From the NCBI GenBank assembly GCA_946481035.1, contig CAMLNK010000019.1, forward strand, positions 1 through 13,582: a DNA stretch of 13,582 bases. Reading direction: 5' to 3'. Origin of the DNA: an uncultured Dyadobacter sp. (GTDB taxonomy: Bacteria > Bacteroidota > Bacteroidia > Cytophagales > Spirosomataceae). A program made the position numbers and the translations under genes. This document shows positions 2 through 9,377 of this stretch, piece after piece. Position 1 is the stretch's first letter; each line of letters begins with the position of its first letter. The notes under the pieces were generated by a model that saw nothing but the letters and a program-made list of their open reading frames with translations, was not told the DNA's origin and ran no database searches.

Positions 2-793
2 GTGTGGGTGGCCAGCGGCGACTACAAGCTGGAAGACGACCATTTCGCAACGCCGTTCGAGCCCGTGAAATGCAATGTGTTCATCACCGAATCCACATTT
101 GGGTTACCTATCTATAAATGGCAGCCGCAGCAGCAGGTCATGTCGGAGATCGACGACTGGTGGGCACAGAACCGCGCCGAGGATAAGGCTAGTGTGTTAA
201 TGGGTTATTCGCTGGGTAAAATGCAGCGGATTTTGAAAAATATTCAGTTGCAGGATTCTGTGATTTACGCCCACGGGGCCATTTACACGGTGAATGAGCG
301 TTTGCGTGAGGCGGGTTTCGATCTGCCCGAGCTTACGCTGGTTACGAAAGAAACCGACCGTAAGCTGTTCAAAGGTGCGCTGGTGCTGGCACCGCCTTCC
401 GCAGACGGAACTACGTGGATCAAAAAGTTTGCACCCTATTCCGTCGGGTATTGCTCGGGCTGGATGGCATTACGGGGCGCCAAGAACCGCCGGGCGGTAG
501 ACCAGGGCTTTGTGTTGAGCGACCACGTCGACTGGCCGGACCTGAACCGGGCCGTGAAGGAAACCGGCGCCGAAAAAGTGTACGTTACGCATGGTTATAC
601 GAGCATTTATGCACGCTGGCTTAATGAAAACGGTATTGAAGCGGCGGAAGTGACCACGATGTACGGCAATGAGGATGAAAACGAAGAGGAGGAGACCGTA
701 CAGGATGCAGCCGCCGGGCAGGATGCCTACCAGGAGCATAAGCAAGAACTCGACGGAGCCGTAAATGCGGACAAAGACGATTTTGAGCTATGA
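2..793 (+). CDS. Ligase-associated DNA exonuclease, C-terminal part (5' truncated by window edge)
   Basis: The visible 263 residues match the C-terminal three quarters of the ligase-associated exonuclease family (metallo-beta-lactamase / beta-CASP fold, related to mRNA 3'-processing factor and SNM1/Artemis nucleases). The frame is open at the left edge. The family is usually about 330-340 residues, so roughly the first 100, including the HxHxDH metal motif, lie outside. What is seen is the SGDYK segment (Asp metal ligand), the ITESTFGLP block, VLMGYSLGK, the THG turn, and VLSDHVDWPDL with a late metal-binding histidine. The end is an unusually acidic tail (about visible residues 222-263) rich in Glu and Asp, likely disordered. 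Its stop overlaps the ligase start as ATGA, so the two are co-translated. The known role of the family, by gene association, is DNA end processing coupled to the neighbouring ligase. The GTG at position 2 is internal and not a start. Confidence 0.9.
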   Translation: MWVASGDYKLEDDHFATPFEPVKCNVFITESTFGLPIYKWQPQQQVMSEIDDWWAQNRAEDKASVLMGYSLGKMQRILKNIQLQDSVIYAHGAIYTVNERLREAGFDLPELTLVTKETDRKLFKGALVLAPPSADGTTWIKKFAPYSVGYCSGWMALRGAKNRRAVDQGFVLSDHVDWPDLNRAVKETGAEKVYVTHGYTSIYARWLNENGIEAAEVTTMYGNEDENEEEETVQDAAAGQDAYQEHKQELDGAVNADKDDFEL

Positions 794-2388
794 AACAATT
801 TGCAGACCTCTTCATGAACCTCGACCGGACGAACAAAACCAATGCGAAGGTCGATTTGCTGAAAAACTACTTTCAGAACGCCCCGGACGACGACAAGCTT
901 TGGGCATTGACATTATTTACAGGCCGCAGACCGTCATTTAAGGTGAATCGCACACAGGTGAAGGAATGGGCGGCCGAGGAAGCGGGCATTCCGATGTGGC
1001 TTTTTCAGGAGAGCTACCATAGTGTGGGGGATTTGGGAGAAACCATTTCGCTGCTTTTGCCCCGCACGAGCACCGGCGGATCGGAGAAATCGCTTGCGGA
1101 GTGGTTTCATTACCTTGGAATGCTGCCCGCCATGACCGACGAACAGAAGCGCGATCATATTAGCCAGGCCTGGATGCAGCTTTCGCAGCACGAGACATTC
1201 GTGTTCAATAAACTGCTCATGGGTAGTTTCCGCATCGGTGTTTCCCAGACTTTGGTGGTGCGTGCATTGGCCGAAGCCACCGAAACCGATTCCAATGTGA
1301 TCGCCCATCGCGTAATGGGGCAATGGGATCCGTCGGGGACGACATTTGAACAACTGATACTCGATAAGGGGGAGAATGATAATGCATCGCGACCCTACCC
1401 GTTTTTTCTCGCCTATCCGATTGAGGGTGACGTTGCAGACCTCGGCGAAGCCAGCGACTGGTTCGCCGAATGGAAATGGGATGGCATCCGTTCGCAGATC
1501 ATTTACCGGAACAAAGAGCTTTTTATCTGGACCAGGGGCGAAGAGTTATCCACCGAAAAGTTTCCAGAATTGCATTTCCTGAGCGGCGTCCTGCCTAACG
1601 GCACCGTGCTCGACGGCGAAATTGTGACTTATGCCGATGGCCGGCCGATGCCATTCAATGTACTGCAAACCCGCATTGGCCGGAAAAATCTTTCAAAAAA
1701 AGTATTGGAAGAAGCCCCTGTGGCATTTCTGGCTTATGATGTGCTCGAAGCAAACGGCGTCGATATCCGCGGGCTCACACAGGCGCAGCGTCGCGCACAG
1801 CTGGAAGTGATACATGCCAGTGTGCCTGTGCAAAAGTATTTTAACCTGTCGCCGCTGATTGAATTCAGCGATTGGCAGACCTTGCGCGACCTTCACCCGC
1901 AGTCGCGCGAGAATATAGCGGAAGGCTTTATGATTAAGAGAAAAGCCGGTATTTACCAGGTGGGCCGTAAAAAAGGCGACTGGTGGAAATGGAAAATCGA
2001 TCCGCTGAGCGTCGACGCAGTACTCATTTACGCTCAGAAAGGCTCCGGCCGCCGCGCCGAACTGTTCACCGATTATACCTTTGCCGTTTGGGGCGACGAC
2101 GGCAAGCTCGTACCCTTCGCGAAAGCCTACTCCGGCCTCACCGACGCCGAAATAGGCCAGGTAGACTATTTTATCAAACGTAATATTTTAGAAAAATTCG
2201 GTCCCGTCCGGACCGTCAAGCCCGAGCTCGTCTTTGAAATCGGGTTTGAAGGGATCAACGAATCCACGCGGCATAAGTCGGGCATTGCAGTGCGGTTCCC
2301 ACGGATTTTGCGCTGGCGAAAGGATAAGAAGGCCGAGGAGGCGGATAGTTTGGGAAGCTTGCGGGAGATATTAGGTAATTATAAATAA
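790..2388 (+). CDS. ATP-dependent DNA ligase (ligase-associated repair cassette)
   Basis: 532 residues, the usual length for the bacterial ATP-dependent ligase of this cassette. It seals DNA nicks through a ligase-AMP intermediate. An N-terminal helical DNA-binding domain (about 1-195) is followed by the nucleotidyltransferase core (about 205-410) and a C-terminal OB-fold (about 415-520). The catalytic motif I is KWDG at residues 229-232, with Lys229 as the predicted adenylated residue. DGEIV (motif III), EGFMIKRK (motif IV) and WWKWKIDP (motif V) follow, and EIGFEGI lies in the OB part. The ATG start overlaps the exonuclease stop by 4 bases. The reading frame is intact. In related genomes the helicase gene normally follows directly; here it is displaced by about 1.5 kb. 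Confidence 0.95.
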   Translation: MKQFADLFMNLDRTNKTNAKVDLLKNYFQNAPDDDKLWALTLFTGRRPSFKVNRTQVKEWAAEEAGIPMWLFQESYHSVGDLGETISLLLPRTSTGGSEKSLAEWFHYLGMLPAMTDEQKRDHISQAWMQLSQHETFVFNKLLMGSFRIGVSQTLVVRALAEATETDSNVIAHRVMGQWDPSGTTFEQLILDKGENDNASRPYPFFLAYPIEGDVADLGEASDWFAEWKWDGIRSQIIYRNKELFIWTRGEELSTEKFPELHFLSGVLPNGTVLDGEIVTYADGRPMPFNVLQTRIGRKNLSKKVLEEAPVAFLAYDVLEANGVDIRGLTQAQRRAQLEVIHASVPVQKYFNLSPLIEFSDWQTLRDLHPQSRENIAEGFMIKRKAGIYQVGRKKGDWWKWKIDPLSVDAVLIYAQKGSGRRAELFTDYTFAVWGDDGKLVPFAKAYSGLTDAEIGQVDYFIKRNILEKFGPVRTVKPELVFEIGFEGINESTRHKSGIAVRFPRILRWRKDKKAEEADSLGSLREILGNYK

Positions 2389-2419
2389 ACTATAAATTAT
2401 ATTATTTTTTAAATTTTAA

Positions 2420-2456
2420 CTATGCAAATTTAATATTTCATGTTAGATTTGCATAG
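2420..2456 (+). promoter_or_regulatory. 14-bp inverted repeat abutting the start of the DUF4143 ATPase gene (probable operator/promoter)
   Basis: The left arm CTATGCAAATTTAA (2420-2433) and right arm TTAGATTTGCATAG (2443-2456) are reverse complements with one mismatch, separated by 9 bases. The right arm ends at the base before the ATG at 2457. The right arm also contains TAGATTTG (2444-2451), a perfect match to the Bacteroidota -7 consensus TAnnTTTG. No convincing -33 TTG is seen at the usual distance. The surrounding 2389-2456 is extremely A+T-rich, unlike the ligase gene. I infer an operator over a promoter, probably autoregulatory. An mRNA hairpin sequestering the start is the alternative. 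Confidence 0.5.
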
Positions 2457-3635
2457 ATGATCAGGCGCCGACTTGAAAATAGAATTAAAGAAGCTCTAAC
2501 AAAGAATGCTTCTATTGCTCTGATGGGCCCCCGTCAGATAGGGAAAACTACAATCGCTCTTAACGTCGTTGATGCTACGCCGGCATTATATTTAGATTTG
2601 GAAAGCCGACTGGATCTGGAAAAAGTCAGAGACATCCGAGCATTCTATGAAGCAAACAAAGACCGGCTGATTGTGCTCGATGAGGTTCAGCGGATACCTG
2701 AGCTTTTTACCGAATTACGGGGAATTATCGATCAGGAGAGACGAAGGGGAAACAGGTCGGGGCTGTTCCTTTTTCTGGGCTCGGCTTCCATCGATTTGCT
2801 TCAACAATCGAGCGAGTCGCTCGCGGGCCGCATTTCCTATTTGGAGCTTTATCCGGTCGATGTTCTGGAATATGCGTCAGAGGACTTTCAACAAGTCAAT
2901 ACCTTGTGGCTTCGCGGCGGCTTTCCGGAAAGTTTACTGGCCGCTTCGGATCGCGACAGTCTGGAATGGCGGCAGGATTTTATCCGAACCTACCTCGAAC
3001 GCGACATTCCACAGCTCGGTCCACGTATTCCGGCAACAACTTTGGAGCGATTCTGGACAATGCTCGCACATAACCAGGGCAGTGTGCTCAATGCAGCACA
3101 CCTGGCGAGAAATCTCGACGTTTCCGGTGTGACAATCAGCCGGTATCTGGATTTGATGGTCGATTTGCTCCTCGTAAGGCGATTGCAGCCATGGGCTTCG
3201 AATGCCGGTAAAAGATTGGTGAGGAGCCCAAAGATTTATGTGAGAGATAGCGGCATTACCCATGCTTTAATGGGGATAGAAACCTATAATAACCTGCTGG
3301 CACATCCCGTAGTTGGGGGGAGCTGGGAAGGTTTTGTAATTGAAAACATCATGAGCGTGGCGCCTGCGCGAATGCAGCCCTATTTTTATCGAAGTGCCGG
3401 CGGGGCCGAAGTGGACCTGGTCCTTGAATTCGCCGACGGGAAAAAATGGGCGATAGAAATCAAAAGGAATTCGGCGCCGCATTTATCCAAAGGATTCCAC
3501 ATTGCCTGCGAGGATATTCAGCCGGACAGAAAGTTTGTGATCTATTCAGGAAAGGATACATTTCCTATGGGCGATGGCATTGTGGCTACTTCGCTCGTTA
3601 ATATTATGCGGGAGGTAATGAATCGCGTCGGATAA
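2457..3635 (+). CDS. AAA-family ATPase with C-terminal DUF4143 domain
   Basis: 392 residues, typical of the widespread AAA_14/DUF4143 ATPases whose cellular role is largely unknown. The Walker A motif GPRQIGKTT is at residues 24-32 and Walker B LIVLDE at 71-76. A sensor-like LGSASIDLL segment follows, and the mid-region ends at TYLERDIPQL. A helix-turn-helix-like stretch, with NAAHLARNLDVSGVTISRYL, starts near residue 207. The DUF4143 C-terminus carries a PD-(D/E)xK-like set: GAEVDLV with Asp320, and AIEIK with Glu334 and Lys336. This is the restriction-endonuclease-like fold noted for the family, and whether it cuts DNA is not established. The gene sits between ligase and helicase and is not part of the normal repair cassette, so it is probably an insertion. 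Start chosen at the first ATG, directly after an inverted repeat. The ORF is intact. Confidence 0.88.
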   Translation: MIRRRLENRIKEALTKNASIALMGPRQIGKTTIALNVVDATPALYLDLESRLDLEKVRDIRAFYEANKDRLIVLDEVQRIPELFTELRGIIDQERRRGNRSGLFLFLGSASIDLLQQSSESLAGRISYLELYPVDVLEYASEDFQQVNTLWLRGGFPESLLAASDRDSLEWRQDFIRTYLERDIPQLGPRIPATTLERFWTMLAHNQGSVLNAAHLARNLDVSGVTISRYLDLMVDLLLVRRLQPWASNAGKRLVRSPKIYVRDSGITHALMGIETYNNLLAHPVVGGSWEGFVIENIMSVAPARMQPYFYRSAGGAEVDLVLEFADGKKWAIEIKRNSAPHLSKGFHIACEDIQPDRKFVIYSGKDTFPMGDGIVATSLVNIMREVMNRVG

Positions 3636-3703
3636 GTCCGCACCGATAATAAATGACAGAACTGTGAGGCCGCTCAATGATTAATATCAATGCCAAATAG
3701 CCT

Positions 3704-3819
3704 GATCGGGACATTTGGGAATATGCGCGAGCGCATGAACTCGTAAGATCGAAACGCATCTCCAAGATGCAAGGATGATCATTGCCACCGCCGACGGCCT
3801 CGAAGTTTTCCCCTATTAA
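3704..3819 (+). pseudogene. Probable remnant of a DUF5615 (PIN-like) toxin gene
   Basis: The 247 bases between the ATPase and the helicase have no intact gene. One frame reads DRDIWEYARAHELV (3704-3745), closely resembling the conserved core of DUF5615 proteins, where a similar D-x-x-IWEYA segment precedes the IVTKD motif. A second frame, overlapping at 3739, continues RKIETHLQDARM... and ends GLEVFPY-stop at 3817-3819, like the family's C-terminal end. The intervening IVTKDxDF core is missing, and an in-frame stop lies just upstream (TAG 3698-3700). I read this as a frameshifted, internally deleted relic. The match is from memory of the family and short, so it could be chance. DUF5615 genes usually pair with a DUF433 antitoxin, and none is visible. 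Confidence 0.35.
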
Positions 3820-3882
3820 CTTCTTTCGTAGATTGGTACAGTAATTGTTAAATCAGTCCTGTATTTAATCAAACTGGTACCC

Positions 3883-6345
3883 TTGGCCAAATCCCGCGGA
3901 CATAGCATTGTTGAGCAATGGTTTAAAGATAAAAAGTGGAAGTGGGCGGCCTTTCAGAAGGAGGCGGCTGCGGCTTATCTGGCGGGGAAAAGTGGTTTGG
4001 TGAATGCACCTACGGGTAGCGGGAAGACTTACTCGCTCTGGCTGCCGATCCTGATCAGGCATATTAATTCCCTCCCCAAAAAGCCGCTGAAAACGAAAAA
4101 GGGCCTCCAAGTGCTGTGGGTCACGCCGCTTCGGGCGCTTTCGAAAGACCTTTTCCGGAATATGGAAACGGCGGCACTGGAAATGAACCTCACCTGGCGC
4201 GTAGGCATACGCACGGGCGACACGGGTACGCGCGAGCGCAACGAGCAGAAGCGGCAAATGCCCGACGCCCTCATTATCACGCCGGAGAGCCTGCACATGC
4301 TTTTCACACAAAAAAATGCGTCAGAACTCTTCGAAAACTTGCATACCGTTGTGATCGACGAGTGGCATGAGCTCATGGGCAGCAAACGCGGTACCCAAAC
4401 TGAGCTCGCACTCGCACGTCTCCGCATGATCAACCCAGGTCTCCAGACCTGGGGTATCTCCGCTACCATCGGCAATCTCGAAGAAGCCAGACAAGTGCTC
4501 CTGGGCATGCAGTTCCCGCAGGAAAACGCTGTAACCGTCCGGGCCAATACGGAGAAGAGGATTCTGGTGGAAAGCATTATTCCCGAAAGGGTAGAAACAT
4601 TGCCCTGGTCGGGGTATATGGGTATCAGGCTGGTGGATAAGGTGGTGGAAGTGGTGAATAAAAGCCGCACGACGCTGCTTTTTACTAATACGAGGTCGGG
4701 GACGGAGATTTGGTACCGCACGATCATCGAGAAGTATCCCGAGTTTGCCGGCATTATGGCGCTGCACCACGCGTCGCTCGACCGCGAGATCCGCGATTGG
4801 GTGGAGGAGGCATTGCACGACGAGCGGTTGAAGCTTGTAATATGCACAGCCAGCCTCGATTTAGGCGTCGATTTTCGGCCGGTGGACACGGTTATCCAGG
4901 TAGGAAGTCCCAAAAGCATTGCGCGGTTTGTGCAGCGGGCGGGCAGGAGCGGCCACCAGCCGGGTGTCGATAGCAAGATCTATTTTTGTCCTACCAATGC
5001 ATTGGAGCTGATCGAGGCCGTTTCGCTGCGGGAGGGTGTAATCAAAAATATGATCGAGGACCGACCGCCGGTTGCTCACGCATTTGATGTGCTGGCTCAA
5101 TGGATGATCACGCTCGCGGTAGGTGAGGGGTTTGATGAAGCGCAGCTTTTTGAGGAAGTCCGGAATGCGTATGGCTACCAATACCTCAACCGGGAAGAAT
5201 GGGAGTGGCTTTTGGGATACATTACCACCGGCAGTTCGTCGCTTACGGTTTATGACGAATACAAGAAAGTAGAGCGAGTGAATGGTCGCTATGTGGTAAC
5301 CAGCCGCCGCATTGCCCTGAGGCATGTGCTGAGTATGGGTACGATCGTTTCCGAAGTTTCGCTGAAAGTGAAGTTGCAGAGCGGTAAATACCTGGGGGCC
5401 GTCGAGGAATCATTTGTGACCTGGATGAAAGCAGGCGACGTTTTCTTCTTCGCGGGCATGAGCGTGGAATTTGTACGAATCCATGAAATGACCGTGACCG
5501 TGAAAAAGGCCGAGGGAAAAAAAGGTTACCTCGTTCGCTGGGCGGGTGGGCGGATGCCGCTGTCGTCCCAACTTTCCGCATTCATCCGCGAGCGCCTTGC
5601 CGACGCGATCGAAAACCCGCATAAGGAAGTGGAGCTGGCCAAAATGCAGCCGCTGCTCGAATTGCAGGAAAAGCGCTCGGTCATTCCCAAAACCAACGAG
5701 TTGCTGATCGAGCAATGCGAAACCCGCGAGGGATATCATATATTTATATTTCCGTTCGAAGGGCGACTGGTGCACGAGGGAATGTCGATTTTGCTCGCAT
5801 ACCGCATTAGCCAGCTGCGGCCGATCACGTTTTCGGTGGCGATGAACGATTACGGTTTTGAGTTGTTAAGTGATCAGTACGTCGATCTGGCCGAAATCCT
5901 GGGTGAAATGGATCTTTTTTCGACCCAACACCTCGTCGACGACATTTACCAGAGCGTAAACGCGACCGAAATGGCGAAGCGGAAGTTCAGGGAAATTGCC
6001 GCCATCGCCGGGCTGATGTTCCAGGGGTATCCGGGTAAATATGTCAAAACGAGGCAGTTGCAGGCGTCCAGTTCGTTGCTTTTCAATGTGATGAGCAAGT
6101 ATGAGGACAATAATCTGCTGATTAAGCAGGCATACCAAGAAGTACTGACCTACCAGCTCGAAGAGGTGCGTATGCGCGAGGCGCTCGCGCGGATCGAACA
6201 TCAGAAAATAGTCATACAACACACCGACAGACCGACGCCATTCTCATTTCCGATTATGGTAGACAGGCTTCGGGAACAATTAACTTCGGAAAAGCTGGAC
6301 GACAGGATCCAGCGAATGATCAAACAGTACGGTAATGCAGATTGA
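3883..6345 (+). CDS. Ligase-associated DNA damage response DEXH-box helicase (Lhr-like)
   Basis: 820 residues, the expected size for the ligase-associated superfamily 2 helicase related to the Lhr core. It is an ATP-driven DNA translocase/helicase acting in DNA repair with the linked exonuclease, ligase and PdeM. Motif I APTGSGKT is at residues 42-49, followed by VLWVTPLRAL (Ia) and TPESLH. The DEWH box (motif II) is at 159-162, and ISAT (motif III) is intact. RecA-2 motifs are FTNTRSG, CTASLDLGVDF (V) and QRAGRSGHQ (VI). A winged-helix/DUF4913-like C-terminal half follows. The start is TTG. No ATG or GTG in frame lies between the upstream stop (3829-3831) and this codon, and the protein from here begins like its relatives. 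No clear Shine-Dalgarno or promoter is visible. The last 11 bases overlap pdeM. Confidence 0.93.
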   Translation: MAKSRGHSIVEQWFKDKKWKWAAFQKEAAAAYLAGKSGLVNAPTGSGKTYSLWLPILIRHINSLPKKPLKTKKGLQVLWVTPLRALSKDLFRNMETAALEMNLTWRVGIRTGDTGTRERNEQKRQMPDALIITPESLHMLFTQKNASELFENLHTVVIDEWHELMGSKRGTQTELALARLRMINPGLQTWGISATIGNLEEARQVLLGMQFPQENAVTVRANTEKRILVESIIPERVETLPWSGYMGIRLVDKVVEVVNKSRTTLLFTNTRSGTEIWYRTIIEKYPEFAGIMALHHASLDREIRDWVEEALHDERLKLVICTASLDLGVDFRPVDTVIQVGSPKSIARFVQRAGRSGHQPGVDSKIYFCPTNALELIEAVSLREGVIKNMIEDRPPVAHAFDVLAQWMITLAVGEGFDEAQLFEEVRNAYGYQYLNREEWEWLLGYITTGSSSLTVYDEYKKVERVNGRYVVTSRRIALRHVLSMGTIVSEVSLKVKLQSGKYLGAVEESFVTWMKAGDVFFFAGMSVEFVRIHEMTVTVKKAEGKKGYLVRWAGGRMPLSSQLSAFIRERLADAIENPHKEVELAKMQPLLELQEKRSVIPKTNELLIEQCETREGYHIFIFPFEGRLVHEGMSILLAYRISQLRPITFSVAMNDYGFELLSDQYVDLAEILGEMDLFSTQHLVDDIYQSVNATEMAKRKFREIAAIAGLMFQGYPGKYVKTRQLQASSSLLFNVMSKYEDNNLLIKQAYQEVLTYQLEEVRMREALARIEHQKIVIQHTDRPTPFSFPIMVDRLREQLTSEKLDDRIQRMIKQYGNAD

Positions 6346-6976
6346 GATCAGAGGCAACCACTTTATATTATTGACGCAGCGGGCGATTTTTTGGGAAGAA
6401 ACGCAAACATTACTGATCGGAGACCTGCATTTAGGGAAAGTAACGCATTTCAGAAAGGAAGGCATCGCCATCCCGAACAACGCCGCCGCCAATAATTTCC
6501 AGCGGCTCAATGAGCTCGTCCGGCAAACCGGCGCTACCCGCATCATTTTCCTTGGCGATCTTTTCCATAATGAATACAATTCAGAATGGGAAACCTTCCG
6601 CGAATGGCGCGCCGAGCACCATTACATCGAAATGATCATCGTGATGGGCAACCACGACATTCTGCCCGTCAGCCTCCTTCTCGAATGCGACTTGCAGGTG
6701 TATGTGAATGATTACGAGGAAGATATATTCATTTTTACACACCACCCAAAAATAGAATTCGACGCATCCAGATTCGTTTTTGCGGGCCACGTCCACCCCG
6801 TTTTCACCTCCTACGGCCGAGGCCGCCAAAGCGTACGGCTCCCTTGCTTTGTGATCGACAAGTACCAGGCCATCCTGCCCAGCTTCGGCGTGTTCACCGG
6901 CGGCTACCAAATGGGGCTCATTGATGACCGGAAGATTTACATTACGACAGAAACGCGGGTTTTTTCTGTTTGTTAG
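6335..6976 (+). CDS. pdeM: Ligase-associated DNA damage response endonuclease PdeM (metallophosphoesterase)
   Basis: 213 residues of the calcineurin-like metallophosphoesterase fold with every metal-binding block present: GDLHLGK (29-35), GDLFHN (74-79), GNHD (105-108), THH (135-137) and GHVH (151-154). These coordinate a two-metal centre that hydrolyses phosphodiester bonds. The family is assigned as an endonuclease of the ligase-associated cassette. The start codon lies inside the helicase gene (11-base overlap, different frame), indicating translational coupling. This is the last gene of the plus-strand cassette, and the next gene converges on it from the minus strand 32 bases away. Confidence 0.92.
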   Translation: MQIEIRGNHFILLTQRAIFWEETQTLLIGDLHLGKVTHFRKEGIAIPNNAAANNFQRLNELVRQTGATRIIFLGDLFHNEYNSEWETFREWRAEHHYIEMIIVMGNHDILPVSLLLECDLQVYVNDYEEDIFIFTHHPKIEFDASRFVFAGHVHPVFTSYGRGRQSVRLPCFVIDKYQAILPSFGVFTGGYQMGLIDDRKIYITTETRVFSVC

Positions 6977-7266: not shown

Positions 7267-7287
7267 TTTGTAGGATTTTCCTACAAA
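7267..7287 (-). promoter_or_regulatory. Palindromic operator-like site A (9-3-9)
   Basis: The arms TTTGTAGGA (7267-7275) and TCCTACAAA (7279-7287) are perfect reverse complements around TTT. The site lies between the stop of the 7302-7514 gene and the ATG at 7245. Read on the minus strand, its TTTG is followed 20 bases later by TAAATCTT, a rough Bacteroidota -33/-7 pair, so a bound repressor would cover the -33 element and spacer. The near-identical partner at 7531-7551 has the opposite central triplet. A weak bidirectional terminator hairpin is the alternative, but the stem is A+T-rich and lacks a clean T-tract. Confidence 0.5.
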
Positions 7288-7301
7288 ATTTGAATAAAAA
7301 A

Positions 7302-7514
7302 TTATCTAGGGAAAAACAAGACCTCTGTTCGAACCTCTACCTTCCCGAACTCTTCCAGAATGCTTTTCATTCGTTTCTCAGAAATTCCTTGATTATGAGT
7401 AAAGTCTCTCCAAGCAGTTGTAAGCTTTCCCTTTTTTACCTCCGGTGGTAGACTTGGATAAACTTCAACTAGCCACCACCTGAATGCCTCCGAGACGGAC
7501 GCAAATTTTTTCAT
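7302..7514 (-). CDS. Small hypothetical basic protein (70 aa)
   Basis: About 70 residues beginning at the ATG (7514); a TTG two codons upstream (7520) is an alternative but overlaps the putative -7 box. The sequence is compact and helical with a Trp-Trp pair (FRWWLVEVYPSLP), then a basic KKGKLTTAWRDFTHNQG stretch and a second Lys/Arg-rich helix (SEKRMKSILEEFG), ending in a beta-like tail. The layout would suit a small nucleic-acid-binding protein, but I do not recognise a family and assign no function. It lies between the two palindromes and downstream of the kinase/HIRAN operon on the same strand. Confidence 0.6.
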   Translation of the reverse strand: MKKFASVSEAFRWWLVEVYPSLPPEVKKGKLTTAWRDFTHNQGISEKRMKSILEEFGKVEVRTEVLFFPR

Positions 7515-7530
7515 AAACAAATATAAATAC

Positions 7531-7551
7531 TTTGTAGGAAAATCCTACAAG
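7531..7551 (-). promoter_or_regulatory. Palindromic operator-like site B with promoter
   Basis: TTTGTAGGA (7531-7539), spacer AAA, and TCCTACAAG (7543-7551) form a 9-3-9 palindrome with one outer mismatch, nearly identical to site A. It sits between the HIRAN gene stop (7574) and the small gene starting at 7514. On the minus strand CTTG in the palindrome is followed 22 bases later by TATATTTG (7518-7525), a perfect -7 box TAnnTTTG, only 3 bases before the ATG. This places the palindrome across the -33 element and spacer, as expected for repression, and implies a very short or absent mRNA leader. Confidence 0.5.
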
Positions 7552-7573
7552 ATTGCTAAGGTTCTAAACCGTT

Positions 7574-8221
7574 TTAGTCTTTGAAATGAATCGATACAAA
7601 TATCTGTTTGATACTTCCGTTTTGATCAACTCCTTTAACCTTTATTTCCGGCTTTTTGCCATGTAGGAACACTAGATTATGAATTTTCTTCACATAGCCG
7701 ACCTTCGTGCCATCCTTATAAATGGCTATTGCATGTGCATCAAATTCGTTATTCGGTTCACTTTGGAAAGTCAGTATGTCATCCTTCTGAACCGTTCCGC
7801 GAGGTAGCTGCAAATGAGAAATACCCGCAAGATCACTTACAAAGCGTAAGCCCTTTTGAGGGTAATAAACCGCAAGGAACTCGAAGTTGTCGGTCGGGGA
7901 TTTTCCTTGTGTAAGTGCGAGTAAGTCAAAGGTGTCTGAGGTTTCCAATGCTTCCCAAAAAGACAGGAATTCGTTTCGGTCTGGGCGGTCTTTGGAGATA
8001 AACCTCTGCATTAGCAGCTGCTCAACCTGGTCAGGAGATAATTTAGGGGCGTTCTTGAAGCCAAAGAAATGGTCTAGTCCTCGTTTCTGAGCACTCTCAA
8101 ACCCCTCATCGCAATATTCAAAAGTTACCCCTTCAGATTTATTTCGCTTGATTTTGGCGATAATAAATCTCCGTGATCCCTGTGCCTCCTTCCAGGCGAT
8201 AAATATTTTTCTAACTAGCAC
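7574..8221 (-). CDS. HipS-like plus HIRAN domain protein (putative antitoxin of HipA-like kinase)
   Basis: 215 residues. The N-terminal part (about 1-115) resembles the HipS/HipA N-subdomain family: a beta strand with SRRFIIAKIKR, an FEYC strand, then LMQRFISKDRPDRNEFLSFW, the region that in relatives reads like 'FANRLLSKSRPDYxxFLEWL'. The C-terminal part (about 118-210) is a HIRAN domain, seen in DILTFQSEPNNEFDAHAIAIY and KVGYVKK; in eukaryotic HLTF/Rad5 this domain binds DNA ends. The GTG start overlaps the kinase gene's last 11 bases, so the two are translationally coupled and stoichiometric. By analogy with HipBST, where HipS neutralises the HipT kinase, I infer this protein restrains the kinase, with HIRAN possibly adding DNA binding for autoregulation or damage sensing. 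No Xre/HipB-type DNA-binding domain is present. Confidence 0.75.
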   Translation of the reverse strand: MLVRKIFIAWKEAQGSRRFIIAKIKRNKSEGVTFEYCDEGFESAQKRGLDHFFGFKNAPKLSPDQVEQLLMQRFISKDRPDRNEFLSFWEALETSDTFDLLALTQGKSPTDNFEFLAVYYPQKGLRFVSDLAGISHLQLPRGTVQKDDILTFQSEPNNEFDAHAIAIYKDGTKVGYVKKIHNLVFLHGKKPEIKVKGVDQNGSIKQIFVSIHFKD

Positions 8222-9227
8222 TCAGACAGTGTTTTAGGCGATCTGATCGGGCGATCAGTAGCGCTTGGATTAATGATTTTCTTGACAAACTTAAGTACGT
8301 TTCCTTTACGTTCCCAACAACGGAGTTATCAATCTCGTTTACAATTCTTCTCAAAGTCTCTGTTGTCAAGTTCGCAAACATCGATTTCGCCGCATCCTGG
8401 ACTATGTCGCGCTCAATGTCCAAAATGTTGCGAACAAGTTCAAAACAATTGATCTTCTTCTCGTTCCAACGTATTTCGTGCTTGCTTCGATCCAAATAAG
8501 ACCCGATTTGTTTTTGATCGGCTAGAAGCTCTTCGACTCGGGCTTCCGATAACTCCCTAGCAAGGCAGGACCCGGAGTCATATATAGGAGAAAAGCTGAC
8601 TTTTCGGATAAATTTAGCTTCGGTCCTCTCATCCATATCGTTCTCAATCGCCTTTTTCATGAATGAAGGCAAAATTAGGTCCCATTTCTTTCGAGGCGCT
8701 GGTGTGGGAACCTTTCGTATTCCTGGTTCCCTGTATAATGTTACCAGGAATGCCCAGTTTTCGGTGTGCCTGTCAGTGTTGCCGATCAAAGCGTCGAAAA
8801 GAATCATTTTGATAAAATCCTCCTTCATACCCCTGAACTCCTCAGTCTGGTCACAAAGCGTCATAATTTGTTGAAATGAGTGGACTGGTTTATGCGACAC
8901 CTCAAATCCCGGAAGGTAATCCCTCAGTATGTCTATTCCATGGTATAACTGGAAAAAGGCACTTGGCACCATGGATTTTGACAAGCAACCGAGTGTGCCC
9001 TGATAGATAGCGACATCATATTGCAGTGTGTTAAGACCCGCGGCCCGGCCTATCTCACTTGCAATAACCTCCGACCAAAATTCAGGCGGATATTTGGCGG
9101 AGGATTGTTTGAAGAAATATTCATCAACGCCTTGTGGGTCGGAGAATATCTTTTGAGGTCTGGAGCCTTTTTGAGGCGAACTCCACTCATTGTTTGTCCA
9201 AGTGGAAATGTCGATAAATCTAGGCAA
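8211..9227 (-). CDS. HipA-like Ser/Thr protein kinase (putative toxin)
   Basis: 338 residues from the TTG at 9227. The family would phosphorylate a protein target; E. coli HipA modifies glutamyl-tRNA synthetase, but the target here is unknown. Seen are GSRPQ in the likely glycine-rich loop, YFFK with the ATP-binding Lys (about 40), WSEVIASEIGRAAGL, the catalytic loop FDALIGNTDRHTEN (about 144-157, with catalytic Asp152 and Asn157), and YDSG (about 216-219), the DFG-like metal motif with Asp217. All key residues are intact. The HipA N-subdomain is absent and is supplied by the adjacent HIRAN-domain protein. An ATG at 9368 would add 47 residues, but these show no family resemblance and would contain a promoter-like sequence. 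The TTG gives MPRFIDISTW, a typical beginning for such kinases. Confidence 0.8.
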   Translation of the reverse strand: MPRFIDISTWTNNEWSSPQKGSRPQKIFSDPQGVDEYFFKQSSAKYPPEFWSEVIASEIGRAAGLNTLQYDVAIYQGTLGCLSKSMVPSAFFQLYHGIDILRDYLPGFEVSHKPVHSFQQIMTLCDQTEEFRGMKEDFIKMILFDALIGNTDRHTENWAFLVTLYREPGIRKVPTPAPRKKWDLILPSFMKKAIENDMDERTEAKFIRKVSFSPIYDSGSCLARELSEARVEELLADQKQIGSYLDRSKHEIRWNEKKINCFELVRNILDIERDIVQDAAKSMFANLTTETLRRIVNEIDNSVVGNVKETYLSLSRKSLIQALLIARSDRLKHCLSAS

Positions 9228-9265
9228 AATCGATGTAGTGTTAGGAAGAGGGACAAGACTTTTAG

Positions 9266-9294
9266 CAAAAATATCAGAAAAACTTCGACTGAAA
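9266..9294 (-). promoter_or_regulatory. Candidate promoter of the kinase/HIRAN operon
   Basis: On the minus strand TATTTTTG (9273-9266) matches the Bacteroidota -7 consensus TAnnTTTG exactly. TTTC (9294-9291), 17 bases upstream, could serve as an imperfect -33 element. Transcription would start near 9260, giving a leader of about 30 bases to the TTG start at 9227. This supports the shorter kinase start over the ATG at 9368. No palindrome like sites A and B is seen here. The 9228-9377 stretch otherwise holds no recognisable gene or strong terminator. Confidence 0.35.
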
Positions 9295-9377
9295 TAAGCG
9301 CTAAAGCTCCCTTTTACCTGAGTGCAATTACCAGTGATCAGGCGGAAAATTTGTAATAGTCGAAACATTTGGAGGCT

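What the first reader, a model, noticed from the sequence alone, without database searches (positions are those of the whole stretch)
7574..9368. Kinase-first HipA-like / HipS-HIRAN pair without any HipB repressor
The sequence shows a HipA-fold kinase with intact catalytic residues but no N-subdomain. Its gene overlaps by 11 bases a GTG-started gene that carries a HipS-like N-subdomain and a HIRAN domain. To my recollection, bicistronic kinase operons with HipS-HIRAN putative antitoxins have been predicted from HipA phylogeny but are hardly characterised. A split kinase whose inhibitor carries a DNA-end-binding domain could tie toxin release to DNA damage or phage genome ends instead of classical operator repression.
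Basis: partly seen in the sequence, partly recalled or inferred. Interest (0 to 1): 0.72.

Follow-up and report, generated by a model that had tools for sequence, protein, structure and literature searches.

The report
Split kinase with DNA-end-domain partner
Two overlapping bacterial genes encode a HipA-type kinase and a partner that joins the kinase's missing piece to a domain of a kind known to bind DNA ends; the pair belongs to an already predicted, apparently untested class of toxin-antitoxin or anti-phage modules.

Summary
At 8211-9227(-) lies a 338-aa HipA-fold kinase with intact motifs and no N-subdomain-1 (likely start TTG 9227, not ATG 9368). The GTG-started partner (7574-8221, 11-base overlap; model pLDDT 92) has a HipS / N-subdomain-1 fold at residues 4-118 and a HIRAN fold at 122-215. 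No HipB-like gene was recognised beside the pair. It fits hipIN (Gerdes 2021) and PADLOC's candidate defence system PDC-M03. The DNA-end/abortive-infection idea is already printed, so this is a new member of a known kind, in a Bacteroidota branch whose kinase is structurally nearest to Helicobacter CtkA. Added support for a defence role: kinase-then-HipS-HIRAN in 33 of 33 loci found on viral contigs (18 split, 15 fused); an exonuclease gene directly upstream in 19 of 33; two of eight Bacteroidota relatives directly behind type I restriction genes; two kinase+HipS relatives behind type IIG enzymes. Low GC suggests horizontal transfer. Inhibition by the partner, DNA binding, kinase target and phage defence are untested. 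Fused forms argue against release by degradation of a separate antitoxin.

The parts
8211..9227 (-). HipI-like (PDC-M03A) Ser/Thr kinase, 338 aa, likely TTG start; HipA core kinase without N-subdomain-1
7574..8221 (-). HipN-like (PDC-M03B) partner, 215 aa, GTG start, HipS-like domain + HIRAN domain
   Evidence: PADLOC PDC-M03B 3.8e-25; HIRAN 27.1 bits; AF2 pLDDT 92.4
7868..8212 (-). HipS-like / HipA N-subdomain-1-like domain (residues 4-118)
7577..7858 (-). HIRAN domain (residues 122-215)
7739..7753 (-). NNEFD motif aligned to NNPYD of the HLTF HIRAN domain
   Evidence: phmmer alignment to HLTF, E 0.007; N158 in 55 of 61 and D161 in 56 of 61 aligned partners; position
9159..9167 (-). Gly-rich loop motif G21-S22-R23 (Ser or Thr after Gly in 26 of 26)
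   Evidence: role by analogy with HipA/HipT
9108..9110 (-). invariant Lys40 (likely ATP lysine, by analogy)
   Evidence: 26 of 26; position
8757..8783 (-). catalytic motif GNTDRHTEN (D152, N157)
   Evidence: D152 and N157 26 of 26; position
8568..8585 (-). Mg-binding motif IYDSGS (D217)
   Evidence: D217 26 of 26; position
8211..8221 (-). 11-nt gene overlap (possible translational coupling)
   Evidence: short overlaps recur in relatives

Best explanation
The pair is a hipIN / PDC-M03 module. Shown by sequence and predicted structure: an intact HipA-fold kinase lacking N-subdomain-1, and an overlapping partner gene that supplies a HipS/N-subdomain-1-like domain joined to a HIRAN domain. Inferred mechanism: the HipS-like domain docks on the N-lobe near the Gly-rich loop and keeps the kinase from binding ATP, as HipS does to HipT; the HIRAN domain binds a DNA end or single strand made during phage replication or nuclease attack, which loosens or repositions the HipS-like domain and frees the kinase; the kinase then phosphorylates an essential component, probably of translation, and stops growth of the infected cell. 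The module seems to travel horizontally and relatives often sit in phages or beside nuclease genes, so anti-phage defence is its most likely role.
For: Folds of both proteins. PADLOC PDC-M03A/B matches for both genes and for 26 of 26 kinases and 28 of 28 partners aligned. In 8 genomes chosen because they hold the partner, 6 kinases were found and 6 of 6 lie next to it. Kinase then HipS-HIRAN in 33 of 33 viral-contig loci found by kinase similarity, 18 split and 15 fused; fusion suggests that the domains work together. Phage cargo positions: between terminase and portal (L088), next to an integrase in Clostridioides and Vibrio phage records, and in P2-type phages behind a DEDDh-type 3'-5' exonuclease gene. 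Two of 8 Bacteroidota relatives follow type I R-M genes; two kinase+HipS relatives follow type IIG genes with a 4-nt overlap. Module GC 0.43 vs 0.507 for the rest; GC3 0.44-0.49 vs 0.52-0.66 for the seven other genes of 400 bases or more that I measured. HipS-type inhibition is experimentally shown for HipBST (PMC10627512, PMC9325769; abstracts and passages seen).
Against: No interface was modelled. The HLTF Arg-Tyr segment (a DNA contact by recall) aligns here to Gln138-Leu139, so end binding may differ or be absent. Fused forms cannot free the kinase by degrading a separate antitoxin. HipS-only pairs beside type IIG enzymes show that HIRAN is not needed for the R-M association. I recognised no defence gene beside the pair in this window, and no R-M gene beside it in 6 of 8 relatives (not every neighbour was scanned; in G001 the contig ends 448 bases before the kinase). 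Two genomes have the partner and no kinase (G609, G476), and one relative has an HTH gene directly upstream.
Confidence: 0.55

Rival explanations
1. The partner is a targeting or activating subunit, not an inhibitor: it completes the kinase (as N-subdomain-1 is part of HipA) and HIRAN brings the assembled kinase to DNA ends, where it phosphorylates DNA-bound proteins.
For: N-subdomain-1 is an integral part of HipA (established knowledge); 15 of 33 viral-contig loci encode all three domains as one protein; the two genes overlap, so both proteins are probably made together.
Against: In the two HipBST systems studied the equivalent separate domain inhibits the kinase.
Confidence: 0.25
2. A plain addiction or element-stabilising toxin-antitoxin module without specific sensing; HIRAN serves for autoregulation on promoter DNA.
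For: Relatives in phages, on viral contigs and on one plasmid; no HipB recognised, so another DNA-binding part could autoregulate.
Against: HIRAN domains are not known as sequence-specific repressors (recalled); upstream of the kinase only short two-copy repeats with one copy there were listed, no inverted pair; fused forms; recurrent R-M and exonuclease neighbours.
Confidence: 0.15
3. A remnant or house-keeping regulatory kinase without defence role in this host.
For: No defence gene recognised next to it here; one relative's kinase has an in-frame stop.
Against: Both ORFs intact with the catalytic motifs; low-GC segment; patchy distribution, 2 of 395 phylum genomes at strong scores, one of them the centre genome.
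Confidence: 0.05

Closest known systems
hipIN modules (HipI kinase, HipN putative antitoxin), Gerdes et al. 2021, PMC8262856
   Same: Kinase first, no N-subdomain-1, downstream gene with HipS-like plus HIRAN domain, no HTH gene.
   Different: Kinase 338 aa against 279-321 aa given for the HipG/I/J/M group; Bacteroidota, which the main text does not name ('bacteroid' 0 occurrences); placement in their tree not tested.
PDC-M03 candidate phage-defence system, PADLOC-DB 2.0
   Same: Both genes match, A 1.2e-58 and B 3.8e-25, and are adjacent.
   Different: No other defence operon recognised around it in this window; the PDC preprint is not held and was seen only as a citation.
HipL (kinase-HipS-HIRAN in one protein), Gerdes 2021
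   Same: Same three domains in the same order; the copy in Escherichia phage 899 has HIRAN and HipA N-terminal domain above Pfam's cut-offs and HipA_C below it.
   Different: Here two proteins; no exonuclease gene upstream.
HipBST of E. coli O127 and L. pneumophila
   Same: Kinase without N-subdomain-1 and a separate HipS-like protein.
   Different: There HipB-HipS-HipT; here kinase first, HIRAN added, no HipB recognised.
CtkA of Helicobacter pylori (3akk)
   Different: CtkA is described as a tfs3-ICE-encoded host-acting protein (PMC5785829, PMC5536186, passages seen); whether it has a HipS-HIRAN partner gene was not tested.
diDNase - HipA - HIRAN clusters of Gram-positive bacteria, PMC11706625 (passages seen)
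   Same: Adjacent HipA-domain and HIRAN-domain genes, said there to be predicted as phage defence.
   Different: No such nuclease gene beside the window pair.

Membership tests
hipIN (HipI/HipN) | HipA-type core kinase with intact motifs and no N-subdomain-1 | tested here: met
hipIN (HipI/HipN) | Downstream gene encodes HipS-like domain followed by HIRAN | tested here: met
hipIN (HipI/HipN) | Bicistronic, no HTH antitoxin gene | tested here: met
   no HTH match in the two small ORFs downstream; upstream gene reads as a large signalling protein (not scanned)
[quoted passage not shown]
PDC-M03 (PADLOC) | Adjacent genes matching PDC-M03A and PDC-M03B | tested here: met
   control: E. coli K-12 HipA matches PDC-M03A only at 1.8e-7
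PDC-M03 (PADLOC) | Protects against phage | not testable with these tools
   needs an experiment
HIRAN domain | Pfam PF08797 above cut-off and HIRAN fold | tested here: met
HIRAN domain | Binds DNA ends | not testable with these tools
   N158 and D161 mostly kept; Arg-Tyr segment of HLTF not
HipBST | HipB gene first, HipS before kinase | tested here: not met
   kinase first; no HipB recognised
HipBA | N-subdomain-1 within the kinase, HipB partner | tested here: not met
Type II toxin-antitoxin | Toxic kinase neutralised by partner protein | not testable with these tools
   no expression data

The most novel reading that the evidence does not exclude
HipIN/HipL/HipJS kinases are a nuclease-coupled guard system: they sit in or beside operons of enzymes that cut or trim DNA (type I R-M, type IIG, DEDDh exonuclease), and the HIRAN/HipS unit senses the ends or strands these enzymes leave, or their failure, and unleashes a translation-stopping kinase as a second line of defence. 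The window's pair would be a free-standing Bacteroidota branch of it, and Helicobacter CtkA a kinase of the same stock put to another use.
Probability: 0.25. Interest if true: 0.7.

Novelty: new member of a known kind. Interest (0 to 1): 0.42.

Why it matters
hipIN was predicted from phylogeny and PDC-M03 is listed as a candidate defence system; I found no experimental test in print (searches; subscription papers and preprints are not covered). If a HIRAN domain gates a HipA-type kinase, DNA ends would be linked directly to growth arrest. The relatives collected here (split and fused forms, with and without nuclease neighbours, phage-borne copies) make the mechanism testable in laboratory strains, and the fused form in P2-type prophages of E. 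coli gives a simple starting point.

Tried and rejected
Start at ATG 9368: rejected on homologue starts. Trp89 of the partner as counterpart of the inhibitory HipS Trp65: attractive, since it is in 28 of 28 rows of A1 and 31 of 31 Bacteroidota rows, but it is in only 1 of 15 viral split, 0 of 11 fused and 0 of 4 other partners, and profile comparison with E. coli K-12 HipA gave no usable alignment; left open. A fused homologue in the protein database: none at E<=0.001, although fused forms were found later on viral contigs. Viral-contig search with the partner profile: 45 stretches matched the pattern, none confirmed; with the Vibrio phage kinase 2 stretches, none confirmed; the kinase profile worked. 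Plasmid search with the partner: no match. The window's own genome is not held, so neighbours beyond the window, copy number and host are unknown; a Dyadobacter-like host is suggested only by protein matches (a Dyadobacter MAG protein at 62% for the kinase). DNA-ligase search for a close genome: best 63% identity, too far for a synteny test. Palindromic sites as operators of the pair: none upstream of the kinase with up to 3 mismatches, no exact copy in the 48 loci fetched by then, no copy of one 19-base form in viral contigs. Rfam: no match at gathering scores.

Counting notes: one search covered 395 genomes of the phylum of G001; 13 matched at E<=0.001, 2 over the whole partner (G001, the centre itself, and G219); the other 11 are partial matches in the HIRAN region and were not counted; 16 of 251 matched, 5 over the whole partner; of the other 11, ten are partial matches to the C-terminal part and one to residues 3-50; 2 of 199, one of them the centre G219. 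(13 of 201, 3 over the whole partner) repeated genomes and is not counted again; one search gave only the centre, 1 of 3. The samples overlap. In one search, 7 of 395 had kinase matches at E<=1e-10: 2 with a close partner, 2 with a distant HipS-HIRAN neighbour (L044 by PADLOC; L048 by sequence similarity only), 2 with HipS only (L045, L047), 1 with no partner recognised (L046, neighbours not scanned). No chance calculation was made for the R-M association (2 of the 8 relatives G001, G219, G476, G509, G585, G609, G636, G750). The 33 viral loci were found with conserved kinase words, so kinases without these words were not sampled. The 61-row alignment took 28 rows of A1, 26 of 33 viral partners (7 near-duplicates dropped), L049, L052, L044, L048, L035, L037 and L056; partners of L036, L038, L039, L040, L041, L050 and L051 were not added.

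Full report
What is there. On the minus strand two ORFs overlap by 11 bases: a kinase gene ending at 8211 and a GTG-started gene 7574-8221. The kinase ORF is open back to ATG 9368, but 17 of 25 aligned homologues start exactly at the column of TTG 9227, 5 start 1-5 residues earlier and 3 listed ORFs run further upstream, so I take 8211-9227, 338 aa.

Known class. Gerdes, Baerentsen and Brodersen 2021 (PMC8262856; outline, abstract, section 3 parts 1 and 2 of 3, section 15 and passages) define hipIN: a HipI kinase followed by HipN with HipS-like and HIRAN domains. They also propose that HIRAN recognises DNA ends of phages and that the freed kinase triggers abortive infection. Their main text does not name Bacteroidota or CtkA. 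PADLOC-DB holds the same pair as candidate defence system PDC-M03; both window genes match (1.2e-58 and 3.8e-25), as do 26 of 26 kinases and 28 of 28 partners aligned, whereas E. coli K-12 HipA scores only 1.8e-7. PDC systems are described as candidates from a guilt-by-embedding approach, most not validated (PMC12988326, passages). PMC11706625 (passages) reports HipA- and HIRAN-domain genes beside a DEDD dinuclease gene in Gram-positive bacteria. No paper in the library holds the term PDC-M03, and I found no experiment on HipI/HipN.

Relatives in Bacteroidota. Matches over the whole partner occur in 2 of 395 genomes sampled across the phylum, 5 of 251 of one family and 2 of 199 of another; the first and third counts include the centre genome, and the samples overlap. 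In the 8 genomes that hold a partner, 6 kinases were found and 6 of 6 lie next to it; 2 genomes (G609, G476) have the partner and no kinase match. One of the six kinases (G636) has an in-frame stop. Overlaps are short: 8 nt in L001 and 4 nt in L004/L040, L035 and L056. In L035 the kinase ATG overlaps the stop of a fused type I methylase-specificity gene by one base, with a PD-(D/E)XK protein and an HsdR-like protein upstream. In L056 the order is HsdM, HsdS, unknown, HsdR, kinase, partner, and that genome has only one ORF with Methylase_S matches. In L037 an 87-aa HTH protein precedes the kinase by 43 bases, so 'no HipB' is not universal. In the other loci I recognised no R-M gene beside the pair; not every neighbour was scanned, and in G001 the contig ends 448 bases before the kinase. 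The window pair has neither kind of neighbour.

More distant kinases. Of 7 kinase matches in the 395 genomes, two (L045, L047) are followed by a 131-aa HipS-like protein without HIRAN and overlap by 4 bases an upstream type IIG restriction-methylation gene (MmeI-type domains in L058). This fits a general link to nuclease-based defence, but shows that HIRAN is not required for it.

Phage-borne relatives. The kinase profile found 27 viral contigs and the Clostridioides phage kinase 6 more. Of these, 33 of 33 carry the kinase followed by HipS-HIRAN: 18 as two genes, 15 as one protein; they form 26 clusters at 95% and 18 at 70% kinase identity. An exonuclease gene (Pfam Rv2179c-like, PADLOC DEDDh) lies directly upstream in 19 of 33: all 15 fusions and 4 split pairs that belong to one 95% cluster. 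One pair lies between terminase and portal genes (L088). Among annotated records, Clostridioides phage phiCDKH02 and a Vibrio phage carry the pair next to an integrase (three more Vibrio phages carry it), a Nocardiopsis plasmid carries a pair, and Escherichia phage 899 carries the fusion. The fusion is in 61 of 5426 E. coli genomes at 99% identity or more; in the one inspected it lies in a P2-type prophage between replication endonuclease and portal, behind the exonuclease.

Acquisition. The module has GC 0.43 against 0.507 for the rest of the window. GC3 is 0.44 for the partner and 0.49 for the kinase, against 0.60-0.66 for six of the seven other genes of 400 bases or more that I measured and 0.52 for the seventh, an ATPase gene. 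This is in line with horizontal transfer.

How it most likely works. HipS blocks HipT by acting at the Gly-rich loop and preventing ATP binding (PMC10627512 and PMC9325769, passages). By shared fold, the partner's first domain probably docks at the same place. HIRAN would be the sensor. The fused forms suggest that activation is a conformational change rather than loss of a separate antitoxin, and they keep the opposite reading alive, that the partner completes or targets the kinase. Target, direction of regulation, DNA binding and phage protection remain untested.

Verdict. The thing is a new, intact, probably horizontally acquired member of a predicted class; the mechanistic idea is already in print. 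The added value is the structural support for both domains, the Bacteroidota branch, the closeness of its kinase to CtkA, and the recurrent neighbourhood of nuclease genes and phage cargo sites.

Noticed in passing
7267-7290 and 7531-7554: Two 17-base palindromic sites TGTAGGAWWWTCCTACA (7-base arms) flank a 70-72-aa ORF (7302-7520, minus); 2 found against 0.08 expected, 1 of 200 shuffles reached 2; no exact copy in 48 loci and no copy of one 19-base form in viral contigs. The one behind the partner gene scores as a weak terminator; the unit could be a small cassette.
   Followed up: partly
2-6976: Plus-strand genes that read as exonuclease, ATP-dependent DNA ligase, DEXH helicase and PdeM-like phosphoesterase (the ligase-associated repair set, named from recall; only the phosphoesterase was scanned), with an AAA_14/DUF4143 ATPase at 2457-3635 between them.
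   Followed up: no
L036 and L038 (G609, G476): HipS-HIRAN partner without kinase. In L038 an Abi_2-like gene (PADLOC PD-T4-5 4.1e-15) stands directly upstream where the kinase would be; L036 seems to hold remnants of the same gene and an SLFN_AlbA_2 gene further up. Possible partner swap.
   Followed up: partly
window kinase vs PDB 3akk: Helicobacter CtkA is clearly the best structural match, which suggests that this ICE-encoded kinase derives from the same toxin-antitoxin/defence kinase stock; none of the 7 papers returned for CtkA/jhp940/HipA holds the word HipA.
   Followed up: partly
L060:3987-6108: A viral contig with a 35%-identical kinase and its partner also carries QueC and GTP cyclohydrolase I genes, with QueD- and QueE-like ORFs between them (read from sequence), suggesting 7-deazaguanine DNA modification.
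   Followed up: no
L058:9424-10494: A 356-aa ORF of unknown family follows a type IIG - kinase - HipS gene row.
   Followed up: no
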